In this document: positions 7,328-54,283 of the stretch, one piece after another
How positions within the stretch are numbered: position 1 is the first letter of the stretch
Layout of the letters: each line of letters opens with the position of its first letter
Assembly (NCBI GenBank): GCA_949361645.1
Contig: OX442429.1
Coordinates: forward strand, 4,319,147-4,383,146
Direction of reading: 5' to 3'
DNA from: Spongilla lacustris
Lineage: Eukaryota; Porifera; Demospongiae; Spongillida; Spongillidae
DNA length: 64,000 nucleotides
Translations under genes and position numbers: made by a program
Notes under the pieces: generated by a model
What the model was told of the DNA's origin: nothing
Databases searched by the model: none
Seen by the model: only the letters and a program-made list of their open reading frames with translations

Positions 7328-10300
7328 GTCCACGAGTACAACGTTGCCATGAGCTGTGAGGGCTGCTCGAATGCAGTGAACCGTGTTCTTTCAAGGCAGC
7401 AAGGTAGGGGGGAGGGATCATAGCAATCTGCATGTCTGTGGAGATGATTTAATTGTGGGCAAAACAGCATCTGCATAAAGGCCAGCATACATGGGGGCTC
7501 CTTGCCTGCAGCTCTGGGTGAACGTTCAGTGAACCATCGGTAAAGTAAAAATGACATATTCATTTGACAAGTCGCCTGGAAGTCACCCTGTATGCTGGCC
7601 TTAAGGTGGATCTGTGGGTGTGTCCCTTTGTGTGACTTTGTGGATGATGATATTCATAACAAACATGTTAAGAGGGAGGGAGAAGGGGAGAGGTGTAAGA
7701 TTGGAGAAGGGAAGAGGTGTAAGATTGGAGAAGGGGAGGGTGTAAGATTGGAGAAGGGGAGAGGTGTAAGATTGGAGAAGGGGAGAGGTGTAAGATTGGA
7801 GAAGGGAGGGGTGTAAGATTGGAGAAGGGGAGGGGTGTAAGATTGGAGAAGGGGAGAGGTGTAAGATTGGAGAAGGGAGAGGTGTAAGATTGGAGAAGGG
7901 GAGAGGTTTAAGATTGGAGAAGGGAGGGGTGTAAGATTGGAGAAGGGAGGGGTGTAAGATTGGAGAAGGGAGGGGTGTAAGATTGGAGAAGGGGAGAGGT
8001 GTAAGATTGGAGAAGGGAGAGGTGTAAGATTGGAGAAGGGGAGAGGTGTAAGATTGGAGAAGGGGAGAGGTGTAAGATTGGAGAAGGGAGGGGTGTAAGA
8101 TTGGAGAAGGGAGGGGTGTAAGATTGGAGAAGGGAGAGGTGTAAGATTGGAGAAGGGAGAGGTGTAAGATTGGAGAAGGGGAGAGGTGTAAGATTGGAGA
8201 AGGGGAGAGGTGTAAGATTGGAGAAGGGAGGGGTGTAAGATTGGAGAAGGGAGGGGTGTAAGATTGGAGAAGGGGAGAGGTGTAAGATTGGAGAAGGGGA
8301 GAGGTGTAAGATTGGAGAAGGGAGGGGTGTAAGATTGGAGAAGGGAGGGGTGTAAGATTGGAGAAGGGGAGAGGTGTAAGATTGGAGAAGGGGAGAGGTG
8401 TAAGATTGGAGAAGGGAGGGGTGTAAGATTGGAGAAGGGGAGAAGTGTAAGATTGGAGAAGGGAGGGGTGTAAGATTGGAGAAGGGAGGGGTGTAAGATT
8501 GGAGAAGGGAGAGGTGTAAGATTGGAGAAGGGGAGAGGTGTAAGATTGGAGAAGGGGAGAGGTGTAAGATTGGAGAAGGGAGGGGTGTAAGATTGGAGAA
8601 GGGAGGGGTGTAAGATTGGAGAAGGGAGAGGTGTAAGATTGGAGAAGGGAGAGGTGTAAGATTGGAGAAGGGGAGAGGTGTAAGATTGGAGAAGGGGAGA
8701 GGTGTAAGATTGGAGAAGGGAGGGGTGTAAGATTGGAGAAGGGAGGGGTGTAAGATTGGAGAAGGGAGGGGTGTAAGATTGGAGAAGGGAGGGGTGTAAG
8801 ATTGGAGAAGGGAGGGGTGTAAGATTGGAGAAGGGGAGAGGTGTAAGATTGGAGAAGGGAGGGGTGTAAGATTGGAGAAGGGAGGGGTGTAAGATTGGAG
8901 AAGGGGAGAGGTGTAAGATTGGAGAAGGGAGGGGTGTAAGATTGAAGAAGGGAGGGGTGTAAGATTGGAGAAGGGAGAGGTGTAAGATTGGAGAAGGGGA
9001 GAGGTGTAAGATTGGAGAAGGGAGGGGTGTAAGATTGGAGAAGGGAGGGGTGTAAGATTGGAGAAGGGAGAGGTGTAAGATTGGAGAAGGGAGAGGTGTA
9101 AGATTGGAGAAGGGGAGAGGTGTAAGATTGGAGAAGGGGAGAGGTGTAAGATTGGAGAAGGGAGGGGTGTAAGATTGAAGAAGGGAGGGGTGTAAGATTG
9201 GAGAAGGGAGGGGTGTAAGATTGGAGAAGGGGAGAGGTGTAAGATTGGAGAAGGGAGGGGTGTAAGATTGGAGAAGGGAGGGGTGTAAGATTGGAGAAGG
9301 GAGGGGTGTAAGATTGGAGAAGGAGGGGTGTAAGATTGGAGAAGGGAGGGGTGTAAGATTGGAGAAGGGAGGGGTGTAAGATTGGAGAAGGGGAGAGGTG
9401 TAAGATTGGAGAAGGGAGGGGTGTAAGATTGGAGAAGGGAGGGGTGTAAGATTGGAGAAGGGGAGAGGTGTAAGATTGGAGAAGGGAGAGGTATAAGATT
9501 GGAGAAGGGGAGAGGTGTAAGATTGGAGAAGGGGAAAGGTGTAAGATTGAAGAAGGGGAGAGGTGTAAGATTGGAGAAGGGACATCATGTAGTCTAGGTA
9601 GGTTACAAGTACATTGTTAGGTCATGGAGATAGATGACAGAGATTGTTGCAGGGCTTTGATGTTGAGTTTGGACAGAAGATTCTAGATTACAATCCCCTC
9701 CCCTTCTCAGAAGTTGCCCAGTTAAAAAACATAGATCAACTGATACAGTACCTGAGTTGCACCTCAATGATGTTCCCAGGTAGTTGTCTGTGGGGTTTTT
9801 TGTGGGTGGACAAAAATGAACCTTGAGTTGGCAGGTAGGGTGGTGGTGAGAGTCACTGGCTGATGATGGCTCTGATGTTGGACCCACAACTGGATCAATA
9901 TTAGGGGTGGAGTCCCTAGTGTTGTGCACTGCCCTAGCTCAATAATGGTTTGTATAAATGGTGGTGCCTTCATCTGATTAGTGGCACAATGTTAGTTTGA
10001 CCTTGTGCTGTGGAGTCACTAAATTTCAAGGTGCTGTTGTGGGAATGTGATATCTGAGGTGCCAAGGTCAAAATTGTGGTTCTCACAAGCTGTAATATAG
10101 GATGTAATGACCTTAGGGTTATATGGAGGAGAGGGAGGGAGATTACATGTATGGTTGGCTGGAGGAGGGCTGTAAATTTCTGTAACATGTATGTTACAGA
10201 AATTTACTGTCTGTCTCACTAAAGTAGTATTGATTACACACACACATGCCACCATCAGCACATGTACTGGGGACATTTGCATAACCTAGTTTCATTAGCC

Positions 10301-10920: not shown

Positions 10921-12980
10921 CTACCAGGTGAGGTCATCCTCTTTCTTGACTGTGAACTTCTGGCTGCTCTCCGAGTAGAACTGTGAGTACCACCGCCTAT
11001 GTTCCAGTATCAGGCGGTCTTCCTTCACCAACAGTGGCTTGGACAGGTAGGTCTTGTTGCTCCACACGTTCACGTCCCTATCAATCTGCACCCCCATGCC
11101 CTAAAGGATTACAAAAATAAAATTTAAAAAAAACAGTGGTATTACATGCACCTGCATGGGGGTGTGGTCAAGAAATGATGGGGCTTTGTCAGTACAGTTA
11201 GCCTCTACCATACTGTGCTGCTATGGTTACTGCTCACCTTCAGCATACCGGTCGCTATAAAAGTAGGCATCCACCAGTCAGCAAAGACATAGTTGGTCAT
11301 CCTTTGGTTCAGTGGCTCTTCTGGGACCACTGTCTGTAGCCATGCCCCATTCCCAAATATGGTCTTGAACCGAAGTATTACTAGTGACGGGCCAATCTGA
11401 AGGGCGCTAAGGTTCACATCCAAGAACGGTAGCGCGAGGCCAAGGACAGAGTTGGCAAGGTGAAGAGTCATGTGACCAATATGACTGTGAAGGGAAAGGT
11501 GAAGAGTCATGTGACCAATATGACTGTGAAGGGAAAGGTGAAGAGTCATGTGACCAATATGACTGTGAAGGGAAAGGTGAAGAGTCATGTGACCAATATG
11601 ACTGTGAAGGGAAAGGTGAAGAGTCATGTGACCAATATGACTGTGAAGGGAAAGGTGAAGAGTCATGTGACCAATATGACTGTGAAGGGAAAGGTGAAGA
11701 GTCATGTGACCAATATGACTGTGAAGGGAAAGGTGAAGAGTCATGTGACCAATATGACTGTGAAGGGAAAGGTGAAGAGTCATGTGACCAATATGACTGT
11801 GAAGGGAAAGGTGATGAGTCATGTGACCAACATGACTGTGAAGGGAAAGGTGAAGAGTCATGTGACCAATATGACTGTGAAGGGAAAGGTGATGAGTCAT
11901 GTGACCAACATGACTGTGAAGGGAAAGGTGAAGAGTCATGTGACCAACATGACTGTGAAGGGAAAGGTGAAGAGTCATGTGACCAATATGACTGTGAAGG
12001 GAAAGGTGATGAGTCATGTGACCAACATGACTGTGAAGGGAAAGGTGAAGAGTCATGTGACCAATATGACTGTGAAGGGAAAGGTGATGAGTCATGTGAC
12101 CAACATGACTGTGAAGGGAAAGGTGAAGAGTCATGTGACCAATATGACTGTGAAGGGAAAGGTGAAGAGTCATGTGACCAACATGACTGTGAAGGGAAAG
12201 GTGAAGAGTCATGTGACCAACATGACTGTGAAGGGAAAGGTGAAGAGTCATGTGACCAATATGACTGTGAAGGGAAAGGTGAAGAGTCATAAGACCAATA
12301 TGACTGTGAAGGGAAAGGTGATGAGTCATGTGACCAACATGACTGTGAAGGGAAAGGTGAAGAGTCATGTGACCAATATGACTGTGAAGGGAAAGGTGAT
12401 GAGTCATAAGACCAATATGACTGTGAAGGGAAACAAGGCAAATAACTATATGTCAATTATGGGGACATACAGTGAAGAGTCATGTGACCAATGGAAATAG
12501 GAGCCATGCAATGGGACAAGGCAGTAAGAAACAGAACAGCATTTGAAGAGGTATAGTAAGTATTGGGCAATGCCATGACAATATGTTGATGTTCAGCATA
12601 ACATCATATACCACCCCTCCCTCTAACATGTCAATTATGATTGTTCTGCAAGGGAATGCTTCAATGTAGCACAACTTCAATGTCTTGATTTCAATTTACA
12701 TGTAGAGGTACTGGTGATATTCAGTTACATATTCCCTAGCCCCCCCATCCCTGCACAGATACATGTACACTATACCTCATAGATTCATTTTCAGGTTGCC
12801 AGGTGGCAGTCCACTTGTGTGAATGTAGATTGGACAGCCATGTTTCTGCAAAGCTCACACTACCCCCTCCTGCAATACCAGGCTGATGGAGGGCATTCAG
12901 GTGAGCCACATCTGCTCCATTCTCTGATATCTCCTCAATGTGAGCTGCAATGTAGTGCACAACCCTTCCCCTGTGTGTGT

Positions 12981-13013
<33 letters not shown>

Positions 13014-16000
13014 AGTATGTAGCATAGATAGTAACAACACACTTGTGTACAAATCCTTGAAATTGAAAAAAAAAACAAGAGCTTATTTCACATGCAGAAT
13101 ACATGTATGCAGTTCACTGTGTGTACAGGAGGCTACTGGTCCCATTATGTGTACAGGTTCTTTGAAAATCGCATTCCCTTTCTGTATAGCAGCTCACATG
13201 ACATACATACATTATAGTTCGCGCGGCTCCCAAATCGGTCACGGACCAAGTATCTTCCATTGCTGAACTTGAACAACGGGGCCCGGCGCTGAACCACCTT
13301 TCGCCATGCCTGTAGTTCAGTACAGCCGCCACAGGCTGCATGGGCAAAAGTCCGAACCTGTGCTCATTAGGGTTACCAGCCTGGATGAATTAGGACGAGG
13401 CGTCGTCGCTAGGTCTTCAAATAAAAGCACAGGTGGGATTGCGGGTCAAACGCCGACTCGCGGAGGGTATATACAAGTATATATATACCACCAACTCGCC
13501 CTAGCGCAGGCGTCCGTGCAAACAAAACGTAACGACCCACCCCCACCAGCTGACCACGCCCCCTTTACGGGACTCGGCCCGTTCGGATTAGGGGCAGGAC
13601 CGCCGGTCTCGCTTGGGGGAGGAAGCCAGGAGGGACTCCGCTTCGCCCAACACTCTGATAATATCGTAGTGCGCGCTAAGTTCACCCTGCCCGCCCTCCC
13701 TTGCATAGAAGCGCATGTATAGCGACCTCTCCCACCCCCCAAATGTTGGTGCGCAAACATTAAGTGCAAATAAGATTTTCTGAATTCATGAGTTCAAAGG
13801 GAAGACATCTCACCTGTATGTCCACTTCCTTGTCTTTATCTCCTCTACCTCCTCCAGAGAGTACTTGGGGTCCCTCCCCTCCACATCATACCACACATAG
13901 ATCAGCTCATTGCACTCAGCAGAAGGCCACACCTTCGTCTTTGCAAATTTGGGGATCTGGGTACGATATGTAAGAGGGAGGGAAAATAGGGTGAGGAAAA
14001 TTCATGCAATCCAATGAAAGATGTAATGACGCCAAGAGGACAAGTACACACCCATCAAGTACACACCCATCACCAACAGGACGAGTACACACCCATCACC
14101 AAGGGGACAAGTACACACCCATCACCAAGGGGACAAGTACACACCCATCACCAAGAGGACAAGTACACACCCATCACCAAGGGGACAAGTACACACCCAT
14201 CACCAAGGGGACAAGTACACACCCATCACCACTGAGGGGACAAGTACACACCCATCACCATAAGGACAAGTACACACCCATCACCAAGGGGACAAGTACA
14301 CACCCATCCCCAAGAGGACAAGTACACACCCATCACCAAGAGGACAAGTACACACCCATCACCAAGAAGACAAGTACACACCCATCACCAAGGGGACAAG
14401 TACACACCCATCACCAAGAAGACAAGTACACACCCATCACCAAGGGGACAAGTACACACCCATCCCCAAGAGGACAAGTACACACCCATCACCAAGAGGA
14501 CAAGTACATACCCATCCCCAAGAGGACAAGTACACACCCATCACCAAGAGGACAAGTACACACCCATCCCCAAGAGGACAAGTACACACCCATCACCAAG
14601 AAGACAAGTACACACCCATCACCAAGGGGACAAGTACACACCCATCACCAAGGGGACAAGTACACACCCATCACCACTGAGGGGACAAGTACACACCCAT
14701 CACCAAGGGGACAAGTACACACCCATCACCAAGAGGACAAGTACACACCCATCACCAAGAAGACAAGTACACACCCATCACCAAGGGGACAAGTACACAC
14801 CCATCACCAAGGGGACAAGTACACACCCATCACCACTGAGGGGACAAGTACACACCCATCACCAAGGGGACAAGTACACACCCATCACCAAGAGGACAAG
14901 TACACACCCATCACCAAGGGGACAAGTACACACCCATCACCAAGAGGACAAGTACACACCCATCACCAAGAGGACAAGTACACACCCATCACCAAGAGGA
15001 CAAGTACACACCCATCACCAAGAAGACAAGTACACACCCATCACCAAGAGGACAAGTACACACCCATCACCAAGAGGACAAGTACACACCCATCACCAAG
15101 AGGACAAGTACACATACACACCCATCACCAAGGAGACAAGTACACACCCATCACCAAGAGCACCCATCACCAAGAGGACAAGTACACATACACACCCATC
15201 ACCTCTGAGGGGACAAGTACACGTCCTCAAAGCATAATACCTTATCAGCATAGGGTATTTTGACACACTGGCCGCTTTCACCATCGAACTGCCAACCATG
15301 GAAGGGGCACTCGATGCAGTTGCCATGGACACGACCTCCAACACCAAGGTTTGCTCCAAGGTGGGGACAGTAGGCATCAACGATCGATACCTGCGTGGGG
15401 AGGAGGTGGGAGGGCTAAATGATATTTCACCATGAACACTGCTTTTCCCAAAATGAAATATTATGTGGATCTGCAGATATTGATCTGCCCACCACTGAAG
15501 GTACATCACACTTTAGGAAATGGAGGGCATATGGGAAGGTAGAAGCAAAATCAATCCTATTTGTTTCAAGATTTATGACATAAACTTGTCCCCGTGCTAG
15601 CAATATTAACCAACTGTGGTTCCGAGCTTCCTGTTTGGGTGGTTAACTATTTAAGCACAATACAGCAGTGCAAGCCACACCCACTAGTTAGCACTTCCCT
15701 GTTAACCCTGCATTTCATTTGTCAATCTTGCCACCACCCTGGCTGCAAGTGAATGATTATTTAGTGCTTGCTAAGAAGTACACATGCATCAGACCATACG
15801 TTTATATCAAAAGTGCTAGACTTCAAACTGATTGGTTTATGTGTCATAGGGTTTTTTTGTCAGGATCTCTGCACAATTCTATGCAGTCCAGTTACAACTT
15901 CCAATGCAATCAGCATAAAATGAAATTCTATGTAGTAAAGTCTAGCGTTGGTAAAAATGATTTACACCACAGCAATTAGTTACATGTACACCTAAAGGCC

Positions 16001-17940
16001 AGCATACATATACATATATATGAGGGGACTTTGTTGCCAGCAACTGGGTAAAAGTCCAGTAAGCCATCCATAAACTAATGTTGTTTCACTGGACTCAACC
16101 TTTACCCATGAGTCCTCAGTATGCTCCATGAATGCTGGTAAGACTTCAACAGGAACAATTGCAAGATAATGATCAAATGAATACATGTAAGCTTGCTACA
16201 GCTTGTTGCTTATGCATGGGTGGTGTCCAGCAGAACTCCTGGGCTAATGTGGGTTGGACTTTAGTCCATTTTCTTGCTATAAAAAAGTTAATCAAAGCAC
16301 ATACAGTAGCCTCTAAACTAGTCAACAAAGCCATACCACTCATTCCACATCACAAACCACTGGGGGGGGGGGGGGGGGGGGGGGGGGAGGGGGGTGCTGC
16401 TACTTATACTAATATGTCTGCCCTGCACATGCACTCACTTTGGGGAATTCAAGAAGGAATGGTGACAAAGGGAGAGAGGAAGGGTGCCATGTATTTTATT
16501 ATCTGATAAGATTATAGATCAAGAGACATACATGTGCACAACACAGTTGAGGTAAGAACTTTGATGCAACCAATGAATTTAGCTGCACTTTACTGATGGT
16601 TAGATGCTAGGTCCCTGCCCTTTGTACCCAACACCCATCCAGCTGTTAAATACTGCACCCATTATTGGATGCCATACACGTGTGCACTTAAGAAGTGGCA
16701 TAATGCTCATCTGGTCCCATGCTGATTTGTGGCATACATGTACCTTACTCAAGCATACAGTACTAAGCACATCGATCAAACCACATATACCACATCACAA
16801 ACCACTTGGGGGGGGGGGGGGGGGGTGCTGCTACTTATACTAATATGTCTGCCCTGCACATGCACTCACTTTGGAGAATTCAAGGAGGAATGGTGACGGG
16901 AGAGAGGAAGAGGGGAGAGGAGAGGAGAGGGAGGGAAAGAGGGGAGAAAGAGAAAGAGAAGGGGAGGAATGCCATGTATTTTATTACCTGATAAGATTAT
17001 TTACACCTCTACATGTGTACATGTAGATTAGGAGACATAAAAGTGCACAACATGTATGTGTGTGTGTGTGTGTGTATGTGCACATGTGCATGCAAAACTT
17101 GCACAAAGCATGACACACAGCAAGCAACACAAAACACAGCACATGCGCACACACACAACAAATATACACACCTTGCCATTTTCACCTCGGAACACAGCTA
17201 AATTCTGTCCTAACATGGAGATAGCTTTAGCAGCCTTCTTTGGAAGTTCACATGACCTCATCACCTCATACCAGCCATTAGGGTATGGAGGGGGAATGTT
17301 TCCAACCTTCCTTAGACGTTGGACAAGACTACTAAGCTCCTTCCTATCTTTGCCTAAGGAAAGGAAAAGATATCACCACACCATAATGACATTTTACAGA
17401 GAGATTTGTTTTTGACATACTTCCATGGAAAAAAACTATATGCATTTTACCCAGTCGTTTTACGTCTGAATGTATGCCAAAGCATCTTCTGCTTCGTGGA
17501 ACATCATGTAATTAAAAACAAACTGCCCTTTCAAGAACTAAAAGCTTGGTTTGCTGTAGATAATGACCGCAATTAGGAGTCAATTAGCGGTGGTCATGCA
17601 CGGTTGCTGTTCGAGTCAAATTGATACGTGCGTTATGCACAGCACATAAGCGCACAATTGCAATGCGAGAAAGGACGATGTATGTGTTGAAGCCATAATA
17701 TTTTTTTAAAGCGCAGCGTGCAGCCAATATATATAACATGGAACGTGTTTCCGCGCAGCAATTTCGCTTGCTAAATCTATGGTCGAGTACGCGTTGCTAT
17801 AGTCTAAATAATATCTCTACATGCTCACATGTATAGCCCAAATTTACGTACTTGTCTCAGCATGGTCTCAGTGACTAACTGTTAACTGATTTTATTTTAC
17901 GATCGCAGTGCAGCGTGGTTGAAAAATCCCCATCAGCTGC

Positions 17941-17973
<33 letters not shown>

Positions 17974-18363
17974 ATTTCTTCACCTAGCTCAAACCCAACA
18001 CTCGTTAGAAGCTGACAAGAGTTGCTTACCAGGTGGGATCTGGAAGCCCAAGTCCCTGGACTTAGCATTGTGCACCAGATCGACAGGTGAGAACAGCACG
18101 AGGTACACTCGGACGATAAGGTATGCAGCATACAGCAGCGCCAAAGCGGCCCCGAATACCTTCAGCAAGGGGCCGACCTCTAAGTAGAGAATGCCTTTAG
18201 GCACCAGATCGGCAATTACTCTCCGGCAAGTTGAATTCCCTCCAGTGCACAGCACCGCCTGCGTGACGCCTCGCTCGTATACTTCTTTGTAGAGGTATGA
18301 GAACGCCAGTAATCCGAACACGTGCATCGACGCGGCCTTCAAGTTGTTTCCAGAAAGAAACAT
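10921..18363 (-). CDS. nvd-like: Neverland/DAF-36-like Rieske oxygenase, copy 1
   Basis: Seven coding exons on the minus strand: 18363-18030, 17353-17172, 15390-15241, 13956-13814, 12970-12776, 11484-11238, 11100-10921 (TAG). All have GT-AG borders, and the total gives 476 aa. Exon 1 carries hydrophobic N-terminal segments ([30 protein letters not shown]), likely membrane anchors. Exon 3 has the Rieske motif CPH-x17-CPFH, which binds a 2Fe-2S cluster. Exon 5 has [13 protein letters not shown], the E-x3-D-x2-H-x4-H catalytic iron site. Known family members dehydrogenate cholesterol at C7-C8. The substrate here is inferred, not shown. Introns hold a 26-bp minisatellite beginning a few bases from the exon 3 donor, a CA-repeat acceptor before exon 5, and a 39-bp array that repeats the exon 6 acceptor. 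The ATG at 18363 gives exon 1 a length (334 bp) close to its paralogs (331 bp). Confidence 0.9.
11116..11121 (+). promoter_or_regulatory. Candidate polyadenylation signal for the ATOX1-like gene
   Basis: This is the first plus-strand AATAAA after the ATOX1-like stop codon. It lies in intron 6 of the opposing oxygenase gene. If used, the transcript would run antisense across the whole last oxygenase exon. Inference only. Confidence 0.3.
11461..12431 (-). repeat. 39-bp array of splice acceptor plus exon start, ~25 copies
   Basis: On the gene strand each unit reads CTTTCCCTTCACAG (pyrimidine tract and AG) followed by TCATATTGGTCACATGACTC and TTCAC. The last unit (11461-11499) is the real intron 5/exon 6 junction: exon 6 starting at 11484 has exactly the 247 bp found in both paralogs. 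Each unit also contains a TGAC that could serve as a branch site. Variants are few: ATATTGG versus ATGTTGG, ACTCTTCACC versus ACTCATCACC, and two units with TTATGACTC. The minus-strand frame stays open to 12407. Confidence 0.95.
12971..13013. repeat. (TG)n microsatellite at the exon 5 acceptor of copy 1
   Basis: On the gene strand a CA repeat runs directly into the acceptor CACACAG|GGGAAGG and takes the place of the usual pyrimidine tract. Confidence 0.9.
13215..13735. other. CpG-rich block inside intron 4 of copy 1
   Basis: A GC- and CpG-rich stretch contrasts with the AT-rich flanks. It has open frames on both strands (for example 13306-13722 plus, 138 codons), but no family is recognised. 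A TATATACAAGTATATATATA stretch lies inside it. It might be an inserted element, an internal promoter, or foreign DNA. Confidence 0.4.
14040..15232. repeat. 26-bp minisatellite, ~45 copies
   Basis: The unit is GACAAGTACACACCCATCAC followed by CAAGGG, with AAGAGG, AAGAAG, TCCCC and ACTGAGG variants. It fills most of intron 3 of oxygenase copy 1 and stops a few bases from the exon 3 donor (15240/15241). Because 26 is not a multiple of three and no unit holds a plus-strand stop, all plus frames read through, giving a spurious 419-codon frame. Confidence 0.95.
16330..17000. repeat. Direct duplication with poly(G) inside intron 2 of copy 1
   Basis: About 16347-16512 and 16791-16998 share the order: CACATCACAAACCACT, a long G tract, TGCTGCTACTTATACTAATA, TGTCTGCCCTGCACATGCAC, AATTCAAG.AGGAATGGTGA, and a final ATGTATTTTATTA.CTGATAA. 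The second copy also carries a purine-rich GGGAGAGG expansion (about 16899-16965). Confidence 0.8.
17941..17971. repeat. Poly(A) tract
   Basis: An uninterrupted run of about 31 A lies in intron 1 of oxygenase copy 1. On the gene strand it is poly(T), about 60 bp after the exon 1 donor. Confidence 0.95.
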
Positions 18364-27742: not shown

Positions 27743-27819
<77 letters not shown>

Positions 27820-38985: not shown

Positions 38986-39256
38986 TAGGGAGAAAGCCAA
39001 TAGTATAGGGAGAAGGCAGGAAATAGTATAGGGATAAGGCCAACAGTACAGGGAGAAGGCCAACAGTATAGGGAGAAGGCCAACAGTATAGGGAGAAGGC
39101 CAACAGTATAGGGAGCAGGCCAACAGTATAGCGAGAAGGCCACCAGTCTAACACTACAGGAAGAAGACCAACAGTATAAGGAGACGGGCAATTAACGGTC
39201 CGGGAGAAGGCCAACAGTACAGGGAGAATTCCATACAGTACTATTATAGGGAGAAG
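38986..39256. repeat. 20-bp minisatellite, locus 2
   Basis: About eleven partly diverged copies of AGGCCAACAGTATAGGGAGA, the same unit as the array at 37290-37445 about 1.5 kb away. The array ends about 55 bp before the left arm of the giant inverted repeat. Confidence 0.9.
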
Positions 39257-39581
39257 GCCATATCTCCTCCCCCTTCACTGCATCGAATATATGCCTGTTC
39301 TGCACATACTAAATTTATGGGATGTAATTCGTGCCAAAACTACACCACACATTGTTTACGACGCACACCATACCCAAAATTGCACAGTCTGGGGACCCGA
39401 CCGATGCAAGTCGGGTCCCCATACCGGTCTCATGTGTCGATCGTGCCAAAACTCGCGTAGACACACCGATGTCATTTCAAAATTTCTCTACTTTTTTATA
39501 ATAAGACGTTCCTCTTTATTTCTCGTATACAACGACTTGTCTTCGAGGAAAGTTTTTTATCTTTTAGTATTGCACCCTAGT

Positions 39582-41883
39582 ATGACCAACAAGCTCAAGG
39601 AAGCTGGTGGAGGTGAGGCTAACGTTTAGAATGACGGTGTAAATTGCATTTCATTCTGAAGCTGCCTGTGTATGCTAACACGCGTGCATGCTACTCAGTA
39701 GTTATCACTAGCTAATAGTTTATGGTCACTCAATTGTTCTTTGCAGATCTCCTGAGTGATGACAACCGGTCTGTCGACTCCAACTCTCACGTATGTTTTG
39801 ATCAGTCGTCTCGGTGCACTAGGTAGTGTTCGTGGGCGTTTTAATTTACCTACTTTACGGGGATAAATACGCAGAACCGTAGCCAGGGGCGGATCCAGGA
39901 ATTGGGAGCGGGGGGGGGCAAAGGTGAGGGTGTGGCAGGGGGGGGGGGGGGCAAATCAGGAGGCGTAGCCACCCCGGGGAGGGTGCGGGAGGGGGCTGTA
40001 AGCTCCCCCAGCGGGGCCTGGGGCATAGCCCCAGAAGCCAACGCTTTTTGCGTTGTAAACCCCCCAAAAGTACTTGGCTATGAATATTTAATTTCTATTT
40101 GGCGGGGGGGGGGGGGGGGGGGGGGGGGCAGAACCCAGTTGCCCCCCCCCCCCCCCCCCCCCCCCTCCCCTGGATCCGCCACTGGTAGCTTTGTGTTTTT
40201 GGTGTGTGTTGTGCCCAGACACGTGGTACTTTTACATGTGTATCTTGCTGTTCTGTGTAGTTTTCTTTTCACAACATTGGGGGTGTGGAAAGGAAATGAG
40301 GGGTGGAGTAATTAGGTGGGGACTGGAGCTTTGATCATCATCTGTGTGCCTGATACACGTCTGCCATAGTAAGCTGACATTCTTGGGGATGTCTGCGCGC
40401 GTAAATATAGGCCTACTTGCATGTGTGTATGTATGTGTGCTTTATGGTCCTCTATGTTCTTTCCAGACCTGCTGGGTGATGAGCACCGGACCATCAATTT
40501 TCAACTTCAACTCTCGTGTATGTTAATTCTACTAGCTTGCACTAATTAGATGAAGGAATCTAATTGTGTCCATGATTCTAAAGATTATGCAGGGTGTTAA
40601 CAGGACCATAGATTTCTGATTTAGGTTGTGTGTGCTGAATAATTGTCCTGCACGAAAAAGCGGTGATCAACATTTAGCCTGCACACTACCTTATAGTATT
40701 TCAGCACATAATTACTTATTTTGTGTACAACCAGTTGTTCTGTTTAATTAATTCTCCCACTCTACTTACTCTATGATGTACATGTATATTAAAGTTAAAT
40801 GCTCATTATTATAATACTGGTCCAAAAAAAAATTCTCCTGTAAGTGTACATCAAGTAATGTAGTACCTGAAAGAACTTGGGGGGGGGGGGGGGGAGGGCA
40901 TGCACAGCTACAATTATTTATGGCCTTGATAAATCAATCATGACCCAATGTGCTTTGATCTTTGTATGAAACATTTTGGGACAACCAGAATAAGTTGGAC
41001 GCTAAATTAAAATTAAACAAAACTGAGAGTGAATGCAGCATAATTAACAGATCTAGGCCAAATAGGATTTTGAAGCATACTTGGAGAGGATGGGGGAGGG
41101 GGTGTGACCAAAACCCAAGTAGATATTCTCACATAGCAACGTTACTATGTATTGCACCTTGAATAGTTTATGGGACAGTGTCCAGCAAAACCGGGCTTGT
41201 GGGGTTATAATCTTATCATTATAAAAATTGCACGTTGTACTAAACAACACATCTTCGCGACGGTACTACCTTTTCCTTTCAAATTTCGTACACTTGTTCC
41301 CACACCATTTCTCTGAGTGAAAATCGTGATCTACACTTTTTCTGTGCCGTGGAAACAACAATCGTTAACCCCGCGGGTTAGAAATCCACATTTCTCTACG
41401 TACGAGTGTTGAAAACGCGTCAAATTCAGAGTGTGCATAGAAGAGTCCTGTAGCAATTTGGCTGATACCCACAGAGCAGTATGTATGTGATTATAACAAT
41501 ATCCTACATGTACATGTTGGTCTAGAACTTTTGTCCTACACGTAGATCTAGGATATTTGAAGATTAAAAAAAGTAAAGTATTGTGAGATGTCCCTTTGAT
41601 GATGGGACGGAGTCCCAGAGGTGTGCTCTTTTTGTGGACTGGTTGTGTATCTGTGTGTGTTTGCACGAGTGTATGTGGTGTGCATCAATCCTTACACTCA
41701 ATTTACTCTCTCTCCCTCTCTTAAATCTTTCCTCCCCCCTTCCCCCCCCCCCCCTCCCCAACAGTACATGCTGGTCGCACCAGTATATTTGATGACTCCA
41801 AAGACATAACTGTTACACCAACTTCATTGGAACACTTCCTGCTGAGTCTTCAATATTCTGTACAAGAGCTCTTTGCAAACTGA
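39582..41883 (+). CDS. Putative small split gene in the left arm, unrecognised
   Basis: ATG 39582-39612 (MTNKLKEAGG, donor gtgagg), 40467-40517 (DLLGDEHRTINFQLQLS, donor gtatgtt) and 41765-41883 (HAGRTSIFDDSKDITVTPTS, then LEHFLLSLQYSVQELFAN, stop TGA) join in frame to 66 aa. An alternative exon, 39747-39790 (DLLSDDNRSVDSNSH), resembles the second one but has a length that throws exon 3 into another frame with an early stop. All borders fit GT-AG. The inverted copy keeps the same exons with an Ile-to-Thr change (KDITV to KDTTV). No family is recognised. It could be the tail of a larger gene, because the frame is also open upstream of the ATG. Confidence 0.4.
40104..40167. repeat. Poly(G) followed by poly(C) tracts
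   Basis: G runs at about 40105-40128 and C runs at about 40142-40165 are separated by CAGAACCCAGTTG, so they can form a G:C hairpin. The inverted arm has the same pair (about 49096-49145) with different lengths. Confidence 0.9.
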
Positions 41884-42088
41884 CTAGTTTTTATTATCCA
41901 ATATATGGAACTGTTTTTATTATGCATGTTCTTGTCATAAAAAACGTTGCTACGTGCATGAATCCAACCAATTCCGATTAAGTGGAGAGAAGCAGTATTA
42001 TTGCTATTTTAGTTGTGTTCCACCACCATGCAGAGTGGAGGGATATTTAAGATAGAGTAAAAGTTGATATTATTTTTCATGTGGTGAT

Positions 42089-42437
42089 GCTAAGGGACAT
42101 TCTACTTGAGTCATTCCATCGGGCCCACATACATGTTCAAGTTGAGGCTGGTTCTGGAAGACAATCATAGTTTTTTACTGGGACTGCAGCTGGACCTGGC
42201 TGTCGTTTTACTACTTTATGCAAACATTTTTATGGAGTGGGTATAACAGCTGGTGCAGTAGCTAAGGCTGCAGAGGTGAGGAAGCATACAGCCAACGACC
42301 AGAAGTGTATTGAGTTGGGATGGTCTTTTATCTCTTGCTGTGGAGTCATATGGCGCTTGGGGCAGAGATGCCCAGGAGTGCTTCACACATTGAGCAGCAA
42401 GTTCAAGACAACATTCAATCTCTTAACCTGGCTCTGA
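42089..42437 (+). pseudogene. LINE 3' fragment in the left arm
   Basis: Contains LRDIL-ESFHRAHIHVQVEAGSG-like words and the open stretch GITAGAVAKAAEVRKHTAND, then QKCIELGW. This is the same family as the fragment at 22.5-23.7 kb. It is broken by a stop in the first part. The right arm carries the inverted copy. Confidence 0.6.
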
Positions 42438-42935
42438 TCATTTCAAAATCAACTTGACATTAGTTGGTAGTTAATGTTGTGATAATTTTAATTGTAATAG
42501 TAATGATTATAAAAGGTATTTCAGTGTATTAGATTATGTGCACAACCCAATGAGCACAGTCACAATATCCTGTTCAAAAAAGATCTAGTAGACTCTAGTT
42601 CTGATGTAAGTTTACTCTTCTTCCCATGTACTATGCCCAGTTTCTTTTTCCATTGCAGAAATTAATTTTTTTGTGTGTGGTAAACTACCACCTCAGTTGC
42701 ATCTCTTTTTAAATCCTAAATTATTCTAGAAGAGAGAGTAGCTGTATAATCAATACATAAGCTACAAATTTCAAGCTAACTCTAGACTTGCATTTGAATT
42801 TTAAATGATAATAAGACATAATTGTGAAACTGTGCATGCCTCTCCTGCCAAATTAACTCACTCGAAGTAATTTAATGAATACTTTAATAGTGTGAACACA
42901 TTATCAAGTAAGATAAATACATTCCTTGCAATGTT

Positions 42936-45368: not shown

Positions 45369-45717
45369 TCAGAGCCAGGTTAAGAGATTGAATGTTGTCT
45401 TGAACTTGCTGCTCAATGTGTGAAGCACTCCTGGGCATCTCTGCCCCAAGCGCCATATGACTCCACAGCAAGAGATAAAAGACCATCCCAACTCAATACA
45501 CTTCTGGTCGTTGGCTGTATGCTTCCTCACCTCTGCAACCTTAGCTGCTGCACCAGCTGTTATACCCACTCCATAAAAATGTTTGCATAAAGTAGTAAAA
45601 CGACAGCCAGGTCCAGCTGCAGTCCCAGTAAAAAACTATGATTGTCTTCCAGAACCAGCCTCAACTTGAACATGTATGTGGGCCCGATGGAATGACTCAA
45701 GTAGAATGTCCCTTAGC
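45369..45717 (-). pseudogene. LINE 3' fragment in the right arm
   Basis: Inverted copy of 42089-42437. The translated tail differs by only a few residues (GAVAKAAEV versus GAAAKVAEV). Confidence 0.6.
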
Positions 45718-45930
45718 ATCACCACATGAAAAATAATATCAACTTTTACTCTATCTTAAATATCCCTCCACTCTGCATGGTGGTGGAACACAACTAAAAT
45801 AGCAATAATACTGCTTCTCTCCACTTAATCGGAATTGGCTGGATTCATGCATGTAGCAACGTTTTATGACAAGAACATCGCACAATTTGCATAATAAAAA
45901 GAGTTCCATGTATTGGATAATAAAAACTAG

Positions 45931-48900
45931 TCAGTTTGCAAAGAGCTCTTGTACAGAATATTGAAGACTCAGCAGGAAGTGTTCCAATGAAGTTGGTGTA
46001 ACAGTTGTGTCTTTGGAGTCATCAAATATACTGGTGCGACCAGCATGTACTGTTGGGGAGGGGGGGGGGGGGGGGGAGATTTAAGAGAGGGAGAGAGAGA
46101 AAAAATTGAGTGTAATTTTTCATGCACACTCTATGCACATACACTCGTGCAAACACACACACAGAAACACACAACCAGTCCAAAAAAGAGAGCACACCTC
46201 TGGGACTCCGCCCCATCATCAAAGGGACACCTCAAAATATTTTACTTCTTTATACTTCAAATATCCTAGATCCTAGATCTACGTGTAGGACAAAAGTTCT
46301 AGACCAACATGTAGATGTAGGATATCGTTATAATCAAATATATACTGCTCTGTGGGTAACTTTACTTTCAGCCAAATTGCTGGGCTATCCATCTAGAAAT
46401 TAATAAATGCATGGATACAAGATACAATAAGATATTAATTAACGAACCAAATTAACGACTAAACAGAACAATGCAGCAGTGTAGGGAAGATATTGCAAAA
46501 ATCCAGGTCATATTGGCATGTTGTGAAACAATTTAATCAAAATACAATAATTTTTTGCAGGCACAGGTTAATACTAACATTAACCTTTAATCTGCGTGAA
46601 ACGATCCTGAATTCAGGATCGGTAAAATCCTGAATTCAGGATGGTGAGTTCTGCCATTTATAACAACCATTGCAGTGAAAATTAAAATCATTAAAACATA
46701 AAAGCTGTTTGTTTCAACAATGGTGCACACATTCTATAGCATGGAATAATTTTTATCATCTAGAAAGCTGCCCAAACTTCAAGGATGCATAAGCATGTTC
46801 GTTGCTCCCGCGTACGTAAATTAAATGATTAGCAATTTATAGTTTGTAATGCTTACAAAGAGCATTGAACATATCAATTTTACTCCTTTTCACTACTTAT
46901 TGGTGGTACCACCTCCAGACTCTTGGTAGAAGTTGTATTTTTATCAAACTTGTACACAAAATAATAGAAAAGGGTAATTTATTATCACTGTCCGAGCATC
47001 CGCCCCTTCTTTTTATGTCCAAACAGTACTGGTGACAGCATTTCTACCAATGCCAGGCATTTCTACATCGCTCTCAATGACACAAATGCTTTTTTATTTT
47101 TATTTTGCAGAGGCTAACCATCGTACCACCCGCTCTGACTCGCTTTGCGTAGTCCGCCTTGAGTTAATTCGATGCTCGTACCTCCTGTGTCCCATATTGT
47201 TTAATTTGCTTATATGGCTCTCCTTACAGATCTTAGTAACAGTTTCTATCTTGAAAGTAAGCTTCCTGCTCTTTCCTCAACCTTATACCCGACTTTGATG
47301 GTAACCGCGGCGAACGAAAAAGTAAACTAAGCCTAAAAATTGTTTTTTCTAAACTGAAGAAATAAAGATTTGAATGACTAAAATGGATAGCGCTGTTTAG
47401 ATGAAAGCCTACAGAAGCTAAATATTAAAAAAAAAATCAGCATTACCGTTCGAATTTATGTCGATACGAGCGGCGTAAAGTCATCCTTAATTCAGGATTT
47501 CCATCCTGAATTAAGGATGAAAATAGATTAAAGGTTAAGCAAAACTTTCGTCATCAACTACATTGCTCATGCATGATGAGCCTGGATTTGCAGCTGTAGT
47601 GGTCAAGCCTGCCAGAGTGCTGTGCAATGAGCACTTTATACACAAAATAAACCAGACATACATATCTGGCTTACAAAAAACACTCACACATTTTTTAAAT
47701 ACACAAATTGGTAAGTGGGATATGTATATAGTGTGTTGCGAGTATTATTGAAATGAAATCCTAAAACATCCACTCTTTCAGCCTAAATTGATCAGGAAAA
47801 GCCTTCAAGTTGGTCATGTATCTTTTTACCATAAAGGGCAAAATTATAACATGGTAATGTCATTGAAATATGTGGACATCAATTTAAAAAAACCCAATTT
47901 TAATAACATCAAGCAATTTTAGCATGTTAAAATCGAAAAGCACAAGAGAATATGAAAGTACAGCTCCAATATCCAGCTTTCAGAAATTTTCACGTTATAA
48001 ATAATTTTATTCTTGATATATGGATAGATATATACTATTCAAGGTGCAATACATAGTAACATTGCTATGTGAGAATATCTATTTGGGTTTTGGTCACACC
48101 CCCTCCCCCATCCTCTCCAAGTATGCTTCAAAATCCTATTTGGCCTAGATCTGTTAATTATGCTGCGTTCACTCTCAGTTTTGTTTAATTTTAATTCAGC
48201 GCCCAACTTATTCTGGTTGTCCCAAAATGTTTCATACAAAGATCAAAGCACATTGGGTCATGATTGATTTATCAAGGCCATAAATAATTGTAGCTGTGCA
48301 TGCCCCCCCCCCCCCCCCCCCCCCCCTAAGTGCTTTCAGGTACTACATTACTTGATGTACACTTACAGGAGAATTTTTTTTTGGACCAGTATTATAATAA
48401 TGAGCATTTAACTTTAATATACATGTACATCATAGAGTAAGTAGAGTGGGAGAATTAATTAAACAGAACAACTGGTTGTACACAAAATAATTAATTATGT
48501 GCTGAAATACTATAAGGTAGTGTGCAGGCTAAATGTTGATCACCGCTTTTTCGTGCAGGACAATAATTCAGCACACACAACCTAAATCAGAGATCTATGG
48601 TCCTGTTAATACCCTGCATAACCTTTTGAATCATGGACACAATTAGATTCCTTCATCTAATTAGTGCAAGCTAGTAGAATTAACATACACGAGAGTTGAA
48701 GTTGAAAATTGATGGTCCGGTGCTCATCACCCAGCAGGTCTGGAAAGAACATAGAGGACCATAAAGCACACATACATACACACACTCACACACACTCACA
48801 CTCACAATCATGCACATGTGTACATACGTGCGTGCATACACATGCAAGTAGGCCTATATTTACACGCGCAGACATCCCCAAGAATGTCAGCTTACTATGG

Positions 48901-50361
48901 CAGACGTGTATCAGGCACACAGATGATGATCAAAGCTCCAGTCCCCACCTAATTACTCCACCCCTCATTTCCTTTCCACACCCCCAATGTTGTGAAAAGA
49001 AAACTACACAGAACAGCAAGGTACACATGTAAAAGTACCACGTGTCTGGGCACAACACACACCAAAAACACAAAGCTACCATTGGCGAATCCAGGGGGGG
49101 GGGGGGGGGGCAACTGGGTTCTGCCCCCCCCCCCCCCCCCCCCCCAAATAGAAATTAAATATTCATAGCCAAGAGGCAGTGCCTTACACAATTAATAGTA
49201 TGTGCGAAAACGACTAAATGTACGTGCAGGCACAGGCTGCAGTGCCAGCCGGTGCGGTCGGGCAGGCATACACGTGCTCTAAATTAAAACTTCCGCGACA
49301 GCTGGAATTGTGTTTGAGTGAATTGCAAGGCGCCTATACAATTTTTTTTCAATATTAGCAGGTAGGGCTATGTAGCAAATCCGTACAGTCAAAATTAATA
49401 TTATAGTTCACCGGTTCTTCTGACGTTGAAGTAACTCTGGACTGACCAGATAGGGCCTCGGAGTCGAAAGCGACCAAGCAAAGTAGGTTTGCCATTGGAT
49501 GCATGATACCGGTATTATAGATCGTTTGTACACAATGCTGATAACACCACCAGCCAACTTTGGTGTCACTTCACGCAAAGATAATAGAGTTTATCTACGT
49601 AGATGAGTTATAACGTTTTTGGTGCAGTTTTTACGTACTTTTGGGGGGTTTACAACGCAAAAAGCGTTGGCTTCTGGGGCTATGCCCCAGGCCCCGCTGG
49701 GGGAGCTTACAGCCCCCTCCCGCACCCTCCCCGGGGTGGCTACGCCTCCTGATTTGCCCCCCCCCCTGCCACACCCTCACCTTTGCCCCCCCCCGCTCCC
49801 AATTCCTGGATCCGCCCCTGGCTACGGTTCTGCGTATTTATCCCCGTAAAGTAGGTAAATTAAAACGCCCACGAACACTACCTAGTGCACCGAGACGACT
49901 GATCAAAACATACGTGAGAGTTGGAGTCGACAGACCGGTTGTCATCACTCAGGAGATCTGGAAAGAACAATTGAGTGACCATAAACTATTAGCTAGTGAT
50001 AACTACTGAGTAGCATGCACGCGTGTTAGCATACACAGGCAGCTTCAGAATGAAATGCAATTTACACCGTCATTCTAAACGTTAGCCTCACCTCCACCAG
50101 CTTCCTTGAGCTTGTTGGTCATACTAGGGTGCAATACTAAAAGATAAAAAACTTTCCTCGAAGACAAGTCGTTGTATACGAGAAATAAAGAGGAACGTCT
50201 TATTATAAAAAAGTAGAGAAATTTTGAAATGACATCGGTGTGTCTACGCGAGTTTTGGCACGATCGACACATGAGACCGGTATGGGGACCCGACTTGCAT
50301 CGGTCGGGTCCCCAGACTGTGCAATTTTGGGTATGGTGTGCGTCGTAAACAATGTGTGGTG
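45931..50361 (-). CDS. Putative small split gene in the right arm (inverted copy)
   Basis: On the minus strand the equivalent exons are the ATG exon at about 50091-50121, the alternative exon 49957-49914, exon 48739-48689 and the last exon 46049-45931 (TGA). Lengths equal those in the left arm (44, 51 and 119 bp) and the splice sites are kept. The start-exon ORF upstream of the ATG is also preserved (112 codons, 50413-50075). Preservation may only reflect recent duplication or gene conversion. Function unknown. Confidence 0.35.
46584..47534. mobile_element. piggyBac-like non-autonomous element, 951 bp
   Basis: The ends are CCTTTAATCT at the left and AGATTAAAGG at the right, flanked by TTAA on both sides (46580-46583 and 47535-47538), as is typical of piggyBac superfamily insertions. 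Just inside each end lie repeated palindromes: ATCCTGAATTCAGGAT twice at the left (about 46605-46640) and ATCCTTAATTCAGGAT / ATCCTGAATTAAGGAT at the right (about 47484-47519). There is no transposase. The element is present only in the right arm of the giant inverted repeat, so it was inserted after the duplication or lost from the other arm. Confidence 0.75.
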
Positions 50362-50392
50362 TAGTTTTGGCACGAATTACATCCCATATAAA

Positions 50393-52227
50393 TTCACACA
50401 GTATACTCACCAAAAGACCTGAATCTCAGAAGTTGAAATCATGCAGGGCAATCCGTTTATTGCTGCCTCCACATCTCCAAAGCTACGATTGTGTATTATC
50501 GTTAATAATTCATCTGCAATAACAGTTAACTAGTTGCAACGTACGCAATAACTGTAACTTAATCCCAGATGACGCAAGGTATTACGTTATGACATATTGT
50601 TTATGAATAAATTATGCGCGGTAGAAATTAATTTTTTGTCTTGATTTTACTACACGAATGGTTCATATCATAATTATATAAAACACAGATTCACAATCAG
50701 ACCGATTTATAGTAAATTATAAATATGTTTAAAATTCAATTTGAAAATAAAAGCATGATGACCGCCTATGTATGGGCCATTTCTCCATATGGATACGATT
50801 ACTGGTTTTCTCTGTGATAATTTATGTGCTGGCTTTATTTGCAATAGCATGACTCAGCACCTATGTCTGCTTGTTAGAAGTTACCTATTTTGTACACTGA
50901 CCCTTCTATGTCGCTAGGTGAGGGCAAGGATGTACCTCAGCACACTGAAAAATGCAGACATACATATGCACACAGTCACACACACTCAGATGCCTAAATG
51001 TAAAGTACACATGCTGCTGAAAGGTCATCTCCAAGCTCTGCTGTGATTGTAATGCATCTACATACTACTAGCCCAAATGTAAGTAAGTTCACATATGTAC
51101 CAGAGGGTTTTTTAAAAAGGAGATCAGGGTTACAAAACAGTACATATCTATGCATGTATTACAAGTAAATAAAAACGGCATTTTCTATGCCGAGGAATTT
51201 GGTGGTGCAGTAAATACGATTTGAAGGCAATAGTGCATGCATGGTGTAACAACAAGTCTAAAACCATAAGGTAATCATATATTTAGCACATAGTCTCCTA
51301 CAATGTGTTAAATATTCATTTTTCCTGATTGCACACTTGTTTACTATTAATTGGCTTCAGATCTTATATACTACCAACTTTCTCGTAGAGAATGTTTTTA
51401 TTTATCGTTTTTGCTTATGATAGCTACTACACAGATTACATTTGAGCGCTTGTACAGGTAGGGAACAAAACATAAATTTAAAATTGTGGGTTTAAAAAAA
51501 AAAACGTGCGTAGAGGCACGTACAATTCAAAGCACGCCTTATTGGCAAGTGTCTGATTGTTGCATCTAATTATAAGTTACAGGCAGTTTTTTTTAAGTGC
51601 ATTCTTATATGCCATTACTTGCCATTTTGGTGTAAACATGCGTGTTCACCAAAATATACTATTATTTGTTATTATTCATGTGATATTATTTGGGGATATT
51701 CAGTTCCTAGGTATTCCTAGGTATTATCTCACCACTGTGGGCATGCACTCTCCCGTCACATCCTAAGATTGGCATTCCTTGAACATGTGTACATCTACCC
51801 AAGAAGATGAATATGGTTACGAAATTCGGGATCGGGAACGAGGACAGCCTACTGCATTAAATTTGCATGCGACATCAAACAAACACGAACTGCACGTTTT
51901 TGTGTTCGATATGAACGATCCGATCGTCAGAAAAGTGGGCCGCTTTTTAAAAAATATGGGTCAAGATTTATCTGATTCAAATCCTATACATGTATAAGGA
52001 GCCGTATAGTCTCGTACCCAGACTTATATATGCGACGGTGGCACTTGTGCACCTTGGAATGTAAAGTTGTAAACAATCATATCCAGATCAATGATTATCT
52101 TATAGACCCCCTTTCATATGACGTCAAATATCACATCTTATCGAAGCCACTGGCAAGCAGCCGTAGCACAAATACTTTCCAAAGCCATGCCGCTTTGCTT
52201 TCATAGTTAAATCCAGTTGTTCTGGGG
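50393..52227. other. Intergenic, AT-rich
   Basis: No coding exon is recognised. 51371-51398 (ACCAACTTTCTCGTAGAGAA plus TGTTTTTA) and TATTTAGCACA at about 51279 match the right half of the foldback element at 2186-2456, so a decayed copy lies at about 51270-51400. Confidence 0.5.
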
Positions 52228-53379: not shown

Positions 53380-54211
53380 ATGGAACGAAAGACGTTACAA
53401 AGCTGCGCGTTGCATATCATAGCTTCAACAACACTCGCCTGGTTGTGTTACGTTCTGAATCGGGATATCGCAACGAAAACAAGCATAGCTACAAATCGTA
53501 ATGCAACCGTTGCCGAGAAAGAGCTAGCCGACTTGCTTCCCGACATCTTTCTCCACGCCAAGGTTGACTGGACCCTGAGATCCATCCTGCTACTTGCAGC
53601 TGTCCTATACGGTACTTACATCTCTGCCAAGGTGTATCGATTTCTGTTCGCTGAGGCGAATTATGTTCACGGTATCAGCGGTAGAGATATGGGTTATCAC
53701 GTTGCACCTGGTAAGCTTTGTAATACGTGTATTGGCATGTGCCTGCGTGCGTGTTTACAGGTATTGTTGTGCGTGCGTGTTTACAGGTATTGTTGTGTGT
53801 GCGTGTGCGTGTGCGTGCGCGTGCGCGTGTGTGCGTGCATGTGTGTGCGCGCGCGCGCACGCGGGCGCGTTTCGTTTGTTCGCGCGTACGTACGTACGTG
53901 TATGTGCATGCGCGCACGCAAATGTGCATGCCCTGGCGGGGTACGGCGCCTATACCCACACGTTGTTGTATCGGTACAATAGTGAAATCAAGTCCTGGGA
54001 GGAAGGGGCAAAGTTCCCGCCGGTGGGCATTACAATACATGTATGTCTTTTCTCACCCGTGAGTGGTTTACTTTCTTGGGTGCTATGGGTCCCATAGAAG
54101 CATGCAAGATTACATATAAATGTATGCGCGTGACGTCAGAAGGTCATGAATTAGGCACCATGTATTGTGTAAGCAAACATTTAGTACTTATCATTCTAAC
54201 ATACAGATACA

Positions 54212-54283
<72 letters not shown>

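What the first reader, a model, noticed from the sequence alone, without database searches (positions are those of the whole stretch)
11461..12431. A tandem array of about 25 complete 3' splice sites, each followed by the start of the same exon
Each 39-bp unit on the gene strand contains TGAC, CTTTCCCTTCACAG and then the first bases of exon 6. The paralogs have a single such junction, with exon 6 exactly 247 bp long, so the array grew from the junction itself. Because 39 = 13 codons and every AG is followed by T completing the same split codon, splicing to any unit stays in frame and adds n copies of a 13-residue [13 protein letters not shown] repeat before the conserved domain. This could act as an adjustable acceptor bank that yields protein-length variants, or as a buffer that keeps splicing robust. 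Copy number is probably polymorphic.
Basis: partly seen in the sequence, partly recalled or inferred. Interest (0 to 1): 0.88.

Follow-up and report, generated by a model that had tools for sequence, protein, structure and literature searches.

The report
Minisatellite of repeated splice acceptor sites
In a freshwater-sponge sterol-enzyme gene the spot where an intron ends and an exon begins has been copied in tandem 25 times, so the splicing machinery has 25 nearly identical, in-frame places to cut; similar repeats of the opposite kind of splice site are known in people, and which sites this sponge uses is still unmeasured.

Summary
On the minus strand, 25 CACAG|T acceptors lie exactly 39 bp apart (exon first bases 12420 to 11484), followed by a 247-bp exon 6 that is also 247 bp in both paralogs. 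The gene is an intact 7-exon, 476-aa Rieske oxygenase of the DAF-36/Neverland type; the genome matches the Spongilla lacustris HiFi assembly. Each unit is about 27 exon bases plus 12 bases of intron end, and the junction 17-mer occurs 25 times in the genome, all here. Best reading: a minisatellite that grew from the splice junction and is tolerated because every unit is frame-neutral. Some isoform spread of n x 39 nt is likely but not shown. The enzyme probably needs the last acceptor, because the insertion falls in a beta-hairpin loop inside the KshA_C domain whose surroundings span 22-24 residues in all 49 sequences aligned. An adaptive acceptor bank has no support: no single substitution can make a stop in a unit, so the open frame says nothing about selection. 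Closest precedents: human CBS 31-bp VNTR, IFI6 donor minisatellite, CBS 844ins68. Existing RNA-seq could settle acceptor use.

The parts
10921..18363 (-). DAF-36/Neverland-like Rieske oxygenase gene, copy 1, 7 exons (334/182/150/143/195/247/180 bp), 476 aa
   Evidence: joined exons translate without an internal stop; Pfam Rieske and KshA_C; 80% identity to an Ephydatia muelleri protein
12776..12970 (-). exon 5; ends in AG, donor gtatagtg
11485..12420 (-). 24 complete 39-bp units (about 27 exon-derived + 12 intron-derived bases; the boundary is uncertain by one or two T)
12421..12433 (-). first (5'-most) acceptor, TTTCCCTTCACAG; matrix score 8.4
11485..11497 (-). last (25th) acceptor, the one homologous to the single acceptor of the paralogs; matrix score 9.8
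11238..11484 (-). exon 6 proper, 247 bp, starts with the exon part of the unit
11485..11796 (-). run of 8 identical units (17-24) next to exon 6, perhaps the youngest part of the array
   Evidence: unit types; age is inference
12472..12492 (-).
12434..12471 (-). 38-nt stretch between the relic and the first acceptor

Best explanation
A splice-junction minisatellite. Shown: 25 tandem copies of an acceptor in a 39-bp unit (about 27 nt of exon start + 12 nt of intron end) lie across the intron 5/exon 6 boundary of an intact DAF-36-like gene, and each copy keeps one AG and the same pyrimidine tract; acceptors 2 to 25 also have TGAC upstream. Inferred: the first duplication was a slippage between CACCTT in the pyrimidine tract and CACCTT in the exon, which lie one unit apart. 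Inferred: the spliceosome can use many of the units, so the pre-mRNA probably yields a ladder of mRNAs with n x 39 nt, weighted to the exon-proximal acceptor(s), of which only the last gives the loop length that the enzyme family conserves. Inferred: the array persists because it is frame-neutral, not because length variants were selected.
For: 25 sites in exact 39-bp register with one AG per unit. An acceptor matrix from the 17 other acceptors of the three paralogs gives 8.4-9.8 for the 25 array sites, against a leave-one-out median of 5.7 for the 17. Junction homology with both paralogs and exon 6 = 247 bp in 3 of 3 copies. The annotated E. muelleri protein P0001 has the exon peptide [13 protein letters not shown] once, so the exon sequence is probably older than the array. 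The junction 17-mer is found only here. All acceptors restore the same codon, and the unit-1 splice is open to the end of exon 6. The junction sits in a loop between strands 323-333 and 341-352 of the P0001 model (mean pLDDT 84.3), and the stretch from W331 up to G354 is 22-24 residues in 49 of 49 aligned sequences.
Against: No RNA was seen, so use of more than one acceptor is inference. Exon definition could hold splicing to the last acceptor alone (exon of 247 nt against 1183 nt from unit 1). The matrix discriminates weakly: a non-array AG in the same intron, at 12646, scores 8.8, and true acceptors range from -5.9 to 15.5. No protein found carries the 13-aa repeat: 2 hits among 6983 candidates, P0001 and P0006, covering 22% and 19% of the query; this is weak, because no row (120 of 1444 shown) exceeds 80% identity, so this gene's own product seems not to be in the database. 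The relic and the 38-nt stretch upstream are not explained by a single duplication.
Confidence: 0.6

Rival explanations
1. Inert array: only the last acceptor (exon first base 11484) is used, because exon definition across the 247-nt exon 6 fixes the choice; the other 24 are decoys inside intron 5.
For: Loop surroundings are 22-24 residues in 49 of 49 aligned sequences. In the human CBS 844ins68 duplication of an intron 7/exon 8 junction the more distal of two sites is strongly favoured (PMC2630376, passages). Exon 6 at 247 nt is in the range of the other exons of the gene (143-334 nt), while unit 1 would give 1183 nt.
Against: All 25 sites score alike; the unit-1 acceptor would make an ordinary 355-nt intron, and the introns of this gene run from 137 to 1781 nt.
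Confidence: 0.27
2. Coding VNTR: the first acceptor (unit 1) is used and the protein carries 24 His-rich 13-residue repeats inserted in the hairpin loop.
For: Unit 1 is transcribed first and scores 8.4. The frame is open. A single-sequence model of the repeat is one continuous beta stretch, residues 2-335, with 10-residue block means of 74-87 over residues 1-310.
Against: AlphaFold2 is known to give confident beta-solenoids for perfect repeats (recalled, not looked up), so the model counts little. 312 extra residues would sit in a loop of nearly fixed length. All four variable positions change the protein, and 0 of 117 single changes can make a stop, so the open frame is uninformative.
Confidence: 0.08
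3. Adaptive acceptor bank or splicing buffer.
For: Pyrimidine tract, AG and TGAC do not vary among 24 complete units while four exon-derived positions do.
Against: Only four variable positions, so all four avoiding those 18 sites is weak (about 7%, worked out by hand as C(21,4)/C(39,4)), and homogenisation within the array explains it too. 12.6% of the window lies in tandem arrays, so an array hitting a junction needs no special cause.
Confidence: 0.04
4. Assembly artefact or collapsed/expanded repeat.
For: Reads could not be inspected here.
Against: No N in the window. If the genome is odSpoLacu1, it was built from HiFi reads at an estimated 34x from fragments of 12-20 kb, QV 53.6. Five unit types in an irregular order.
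Confidence: 0.01

Closest known systems
Human CBS 31-bp VNTR, c.1444_1467+7(16_21) (PMC2630376, passages; Lievers et al. 2001, title seen only)
   Same: Minisatellite unit spans an exon/intron junction (24 exon + 7 intron nt by its notation), 16-21 copies of constant length with single-base variants
   Different: Repeats a donor side, unit not a multiple of 3; here an acceptor side, 39 nt, frame-neutral, 25 copies, in a sponge
Human IFI6 (G1P3, 6-16) minisatellite with multiple splice donor sites (Turri et al. 1995, title in reference lists only; one statement in PMC4526556, passages)
   Same: Tandem units offer splice sites; PMC4526556 says two downstream repeat units are used as splice donor sites, giving three mRNA species
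   Different: Donor sites; unit size not checked
CBS 844ins68 (PMC2630376, passages; Romano et al. 2002, title only)
   Same: Duplication of an intron/exon junction that doubles a splice site; the distal one is favoured
   Different: Two copies, not 25; the passage calls them donor sites, the cited title speaks of 3' splice site selection
Internal tandem repeats at exon-intron boundaries of human segmental-duplication genes (PMC2812944, outline and passages)
   Same: Minisatellites at boundaries change splicing in recent paralogs (27 intron modifications reported)
   Different: There repeats lead to novel introns or cryptic sites; here the native acceptor itself is in the unit

Membership tests
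DAF-36/Neverland cholesterol 7-desaturase family (host gene) | Rieske [2Fe-2S] domain | tested here: met
   PF00355, 85.3 bits, cut-off 20.3
DAF-36/Neverland cholesterol 7-desaturase family (host gene) | KshA_C catalytic domain; fold of KshA | tested here: met
   PF19298, 95.1 bits, cut-off 23.3; model of the E. muelleri relative P0001 best matches KshA structures, Foldseek E 1.7e-21
DAF-36/Neverland cholesterol 7-desaturase family (host gene) | 7-desaturase activity on sterols | not testable with these tools
   names of homologs only
Splice-junction VNTR (CBS 31-bp, IFI6 kind) | repeat unit spans the exon/intron junction and carries a whole splice site | tested here: met
   branch point not tested
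Splice-junction VNTR (CBS 31-bp, IFI6 kind) | copy number varies between alleles | not testable with these tools
   alternate haplotype GCA_949361655.2 is named in PMC12141999 but was not available here
Splice-junction VNTR (CBS 31-bp, IFI6 kind) | several units are used in RNA | not testable with these tools
   RNA-seq ERR12708738 is named but was not available here
NAGNAG tandem acceptors | two AGs three bases apart | tested here: not met
   AGs are 39 bp apart, one per unit
Adaptive acceptor bank | selection on the array (frame, site or peptide) | tested here: inconclusive
   four variable positions only; stops cannot arise by one change

The most novel reading that the evidence does not exclude
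The array is a working multi-acceptor: one gene makes a graded series of enzymes with 0 to 24 inserted 13-residue units, its spread set by transcription speed or splicing factors and re-tuned each time the minisatellite changes length. This would be a natural acceptor bank of 25 nearly identical competing 3' splice sites, part of which are told apart by sequence variants in their units.
Probability: 0.1. Interest if true: 0.85.

Novelty: new variant of a known kind. Interest (0 to 1): 0.52.

Why it matters
How the spliceosome picks among equal 3' splice sites (first transcribed, nearest to the exon's donor, or at random) is, as far as I recall, mostly studied with a few engineered copies. This gene offers 25 near-identical, in-frame acceptors in one natural intron, which pits intron definition (unit 1, 355-nt intron) against exon definition (unit 25, 247-nt exon). 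It also shows the acceptor-side counterpart of the human donor-side splice VNTRs in an early-branching animal.

Tried and rejected
RNA structure as a selector: with a base-pair span of 200 the last acceptor AG looked less paired (0.46) than the other 24 (0.91-0.95), and again 0.46-0.48 with the last ten acceptors, but with spans of 60 and 100 the difference vanished. AG pairing in arrays with a shuffled exon part reached the observed value in 33% of 200 shuffles, and their folding energy in 11.5%; 97 shuffled arrays at span 100 averaged 0.63 for inner and 0.62 for last AGs. Dropped as not robust.

Open frame as evidence of coding or selection: dropped, since 0 of 117 single changes make a stop and three of six frames are wholly open.

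TF-binding array: 23 copies of GTCACATGAC, an inverted repeat but for its central two bases, holding TCACATGA (resemblance to an M-box is recalled). Kept only as an observation, because the motif is simply the exon codons GGT CAC ATG ACT.

Upstream AGs at 12646 and 12446 as acceptors: both lead to a premature stop when spliced to exon 5, though the first scores 8.8.

How common this is in the genome: 30 gene-anchored loci (L002-L008, L013-L035; several overlap each other, and L005-L007 lie in the window; L009-L011 and L036-L043, all in the window, were left out) held no array (period 10 or more, 3 copies or more) over the conserved core match. With L012 as a 31st locus, 7.5% of 109,291 bases lay in arrays, against 12.6% in the window, where 1 of 36 junctions of the three paralogs is covered. 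This is a small sample.

Literature: ten searches were counted. Judged by titles and the starts of abstracts listed (several lists were capped, e.g. 15 of 26 and 8 of 99), none is about an acceptor-side array of this size; the library lacks most subscription papers, so this does not show that none is in print. Searches asked for many terms at once and listed nothing.

Full report
WHAT IS THERE. TRF reports one array of a 39-bp unit at 11457-12433 (25.1 copies, 96% matches, no indels). On the minus strand the array holds 25 CACAG acceptors with first exon bases at 12420, 12381 ... 11484, every 39 bp, and no other AG. The 24 complete units (12420-11485) fall into five types in the order ABCDBEEBCBCBECBC followed by eight B; they differ at positions 5, 12, 13 and 21 only. 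The junction 17-mer TTTCCCTTCACAGTCAT occurs 25 times in the 248.6-Mb genome, all here. The array as a whole has one DNA match in the genome, itself (that search skips simple repeats, so it is a lower bound).

THE GENE. Joined exons give an uninterrupted 476-aa protein (exons 334/182/150/143/195/247/180 bp) with Rieske and KshA_C domains, nearest to an Ephydatia muelleri protein (80%). Two paralogs in the window share the 7-exon layout; exon 6 is 247 bp in all three. A search of the genome with the exon 6 peptide found three places, all in the window, and one with the Rieske family seven places; both counts are lower bounds. The model of P0001 matches KshA structures best.

THE ORGANISM. Its size (248.56 Mb) and contig lengths seen (31.13, 22.15, 10.27, 9.18, 8.68, 8.64, 8.40, 7.72, 7.11 Mb) agree with the Spongilla lacustris assembly odSpoLacu1 of PMC12141999 (outline, sections 6 and 9 read), in which chromosome 15 is 8.4 Mb; chromosome 1 there is 31.14 Mb, slightly longer. 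Against it: here contig 23 is only 0.15 Mb and there are 51 contigs, while the paper lists 23 chromosomes of 6.79 Mb or more and 70 scaffolds; contig numbering differs from chromosome numbering, and the version may differ. Identification: inference, strong.

HOW THE UNIT IS BUILT. Gene strand: TCATATTGGTCACATGACTCTTCACCT (exon) + TTCCCTTCACAG (intron end); the boundary is uncertain by one or two T. Exon 5 ends in AG and every acceptor is followed by T, so AG|T restores the serine codon whichever unit is used; the unit-1 splice is open to the end of exon 6. E. muelleri P0001 shows the exon peptide [13 protein letters not shown] once, so the exon probably came first; this is an annotated protein, not its genomic junction. 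CACCTT recurs at 39-bp spacing, and the exon body has CACCTTGCC; slippage between such direct repeats is the likely first step (inference). A 21-nt relic of a unit lies upstream at 12492-12472, separated from the first acceptor by 38 nt. This was not in the finding; it suggests that the array was once longer or was broken.

ARE THE SITES GOOD? A weight matrix from the 17 other acceptors of the three genes gives 8.4-9.8 for the array sites; the leave-one-out scores of the 17 have a median of 5.7 and range from -5.9 to 15.5. Among 7669 AGs of the window (both strands) 0.7% reach the score of the last acceptor, a count that includes most of the array's own sites and the training acceptors. The matrix is small, includes paralogous acceptors of the same introns (which inflates some scores, the intron 4 set above all) and the intron 5 acceptors of copies 2 and 3, and gives 8.8 to an AG at 12646 that would lead to a premature stop. 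So it says that the sites look like acceptors, not that they are used. The role of TGAC as a branch point is a guess from a recalled consensus; the first acceptor has no TGAC close by.

WHAT THE PROTEIN SAYS. The insertion point, S339/H340 in P0001, is in a loop between strands 323-333 and 341-352, inside the KshA_C domain. The stretch from W331 up to G354 spans 23 residues in 40, 22 in 7 and 24 in 2 of 49 aligned sequences, P0001 among them, which I chose from the 120 listed of 1444. A functional enzyme therefore most likely needs the last acceptor in at least part of the mRNA (inference). A single-sequence model of 415 residues (repeat + exon 6 and a few intron codons) is one long beta stretch over the repeat, with 10-residue block means of 74-87 over residues 1-310 and low confidence in exon 6; I give it little weight.

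IS IT SELECTED? No test here has power. There are four variable positions, all nonsynonymous. No single change of the unit makes a stop (0 of 117; 25 synonymous, 92 nonsynonymous), and three of six frames are open throughout. Tandem arrays (period 10 or more, 3 copies or more) cover 12.6% of the window and 1 of 36 splice junctions of the three genes; by that density 4 to 5 would be covered if placement were blind, so one overlap needs no special cause.

KNOWN RELATIVES. The human CBS 31-bp VNTR, written c.1444_1467+7(16_21), is a mirror image: 24 exon + 7 intron nt, 16-21 copies, at a donor (PMC2630376, passages). IFI6 carries a minisatellite with multiple splice donor sites, and PMC4526556 states that two downstream units are used (passages; Turri et al. 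itself not held). CBS 844ins68 duplicates an intron 7/exon 8 junction and the distal site is favoured; the passage calls them donor sites, while the cited title (Romano et al. 2002) speaks of 3' splice site selection. PMC2812944 describes repeats at exon-intron boundaries of human paralogs (outline and passages). Hence: a new variant of a known kind, on the acceptor side, frame-neutral, with 25 copies.

VERDICT. Observation confirmed; origin from the junction well supported; use of several acceptors likely but unproven; the adaptive bank unsupported.

Noticed in passing
18363-10921 (copy 1) against 53380-59817 (copy 3): Exon-by-exon mosaic: copy 1 and copy 3 share 97, 97, 89 and 92% DNA identity in exons 3, 4, 5 and 7 but only 46, 71 and 66% in exons 1, 2 and 6. 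This suggests gene conversion that skipped exon 6, next to the array.
   Followed up: partly
12971-13013, 27744-27816, 58118-58132: In all three paralogs the intron 4 acceptor is a CA repeat that runs straight into the CAG, in place of a pyrimidine tract.
   Followed up: no
28846-28839: Copy 2 exon 3 has no GT at the homologous donor (GATAAG|CCTGTACG); a GT lies 3 nt downstream.
   Followed up: no
14056-15160 and 7679-9582: Two further large minisatellites (26 bp x 42 in intron 3 of copy 1; 23 bp x 81 downstream of the gene).
   Followed up: no
about 39150-42440 and 45370-50430: Near-identical ORFs on opposite strands (e.g. 42171-42437 + and 45369-45635 -) point to a large inverted repeat.
   Followed up: no
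11461-12431: The array holds 23 copies of GTCACATGAC, which resembles an M-box/E-box for bHLH-Zip factors (motif name recalled).
   Followed up: no
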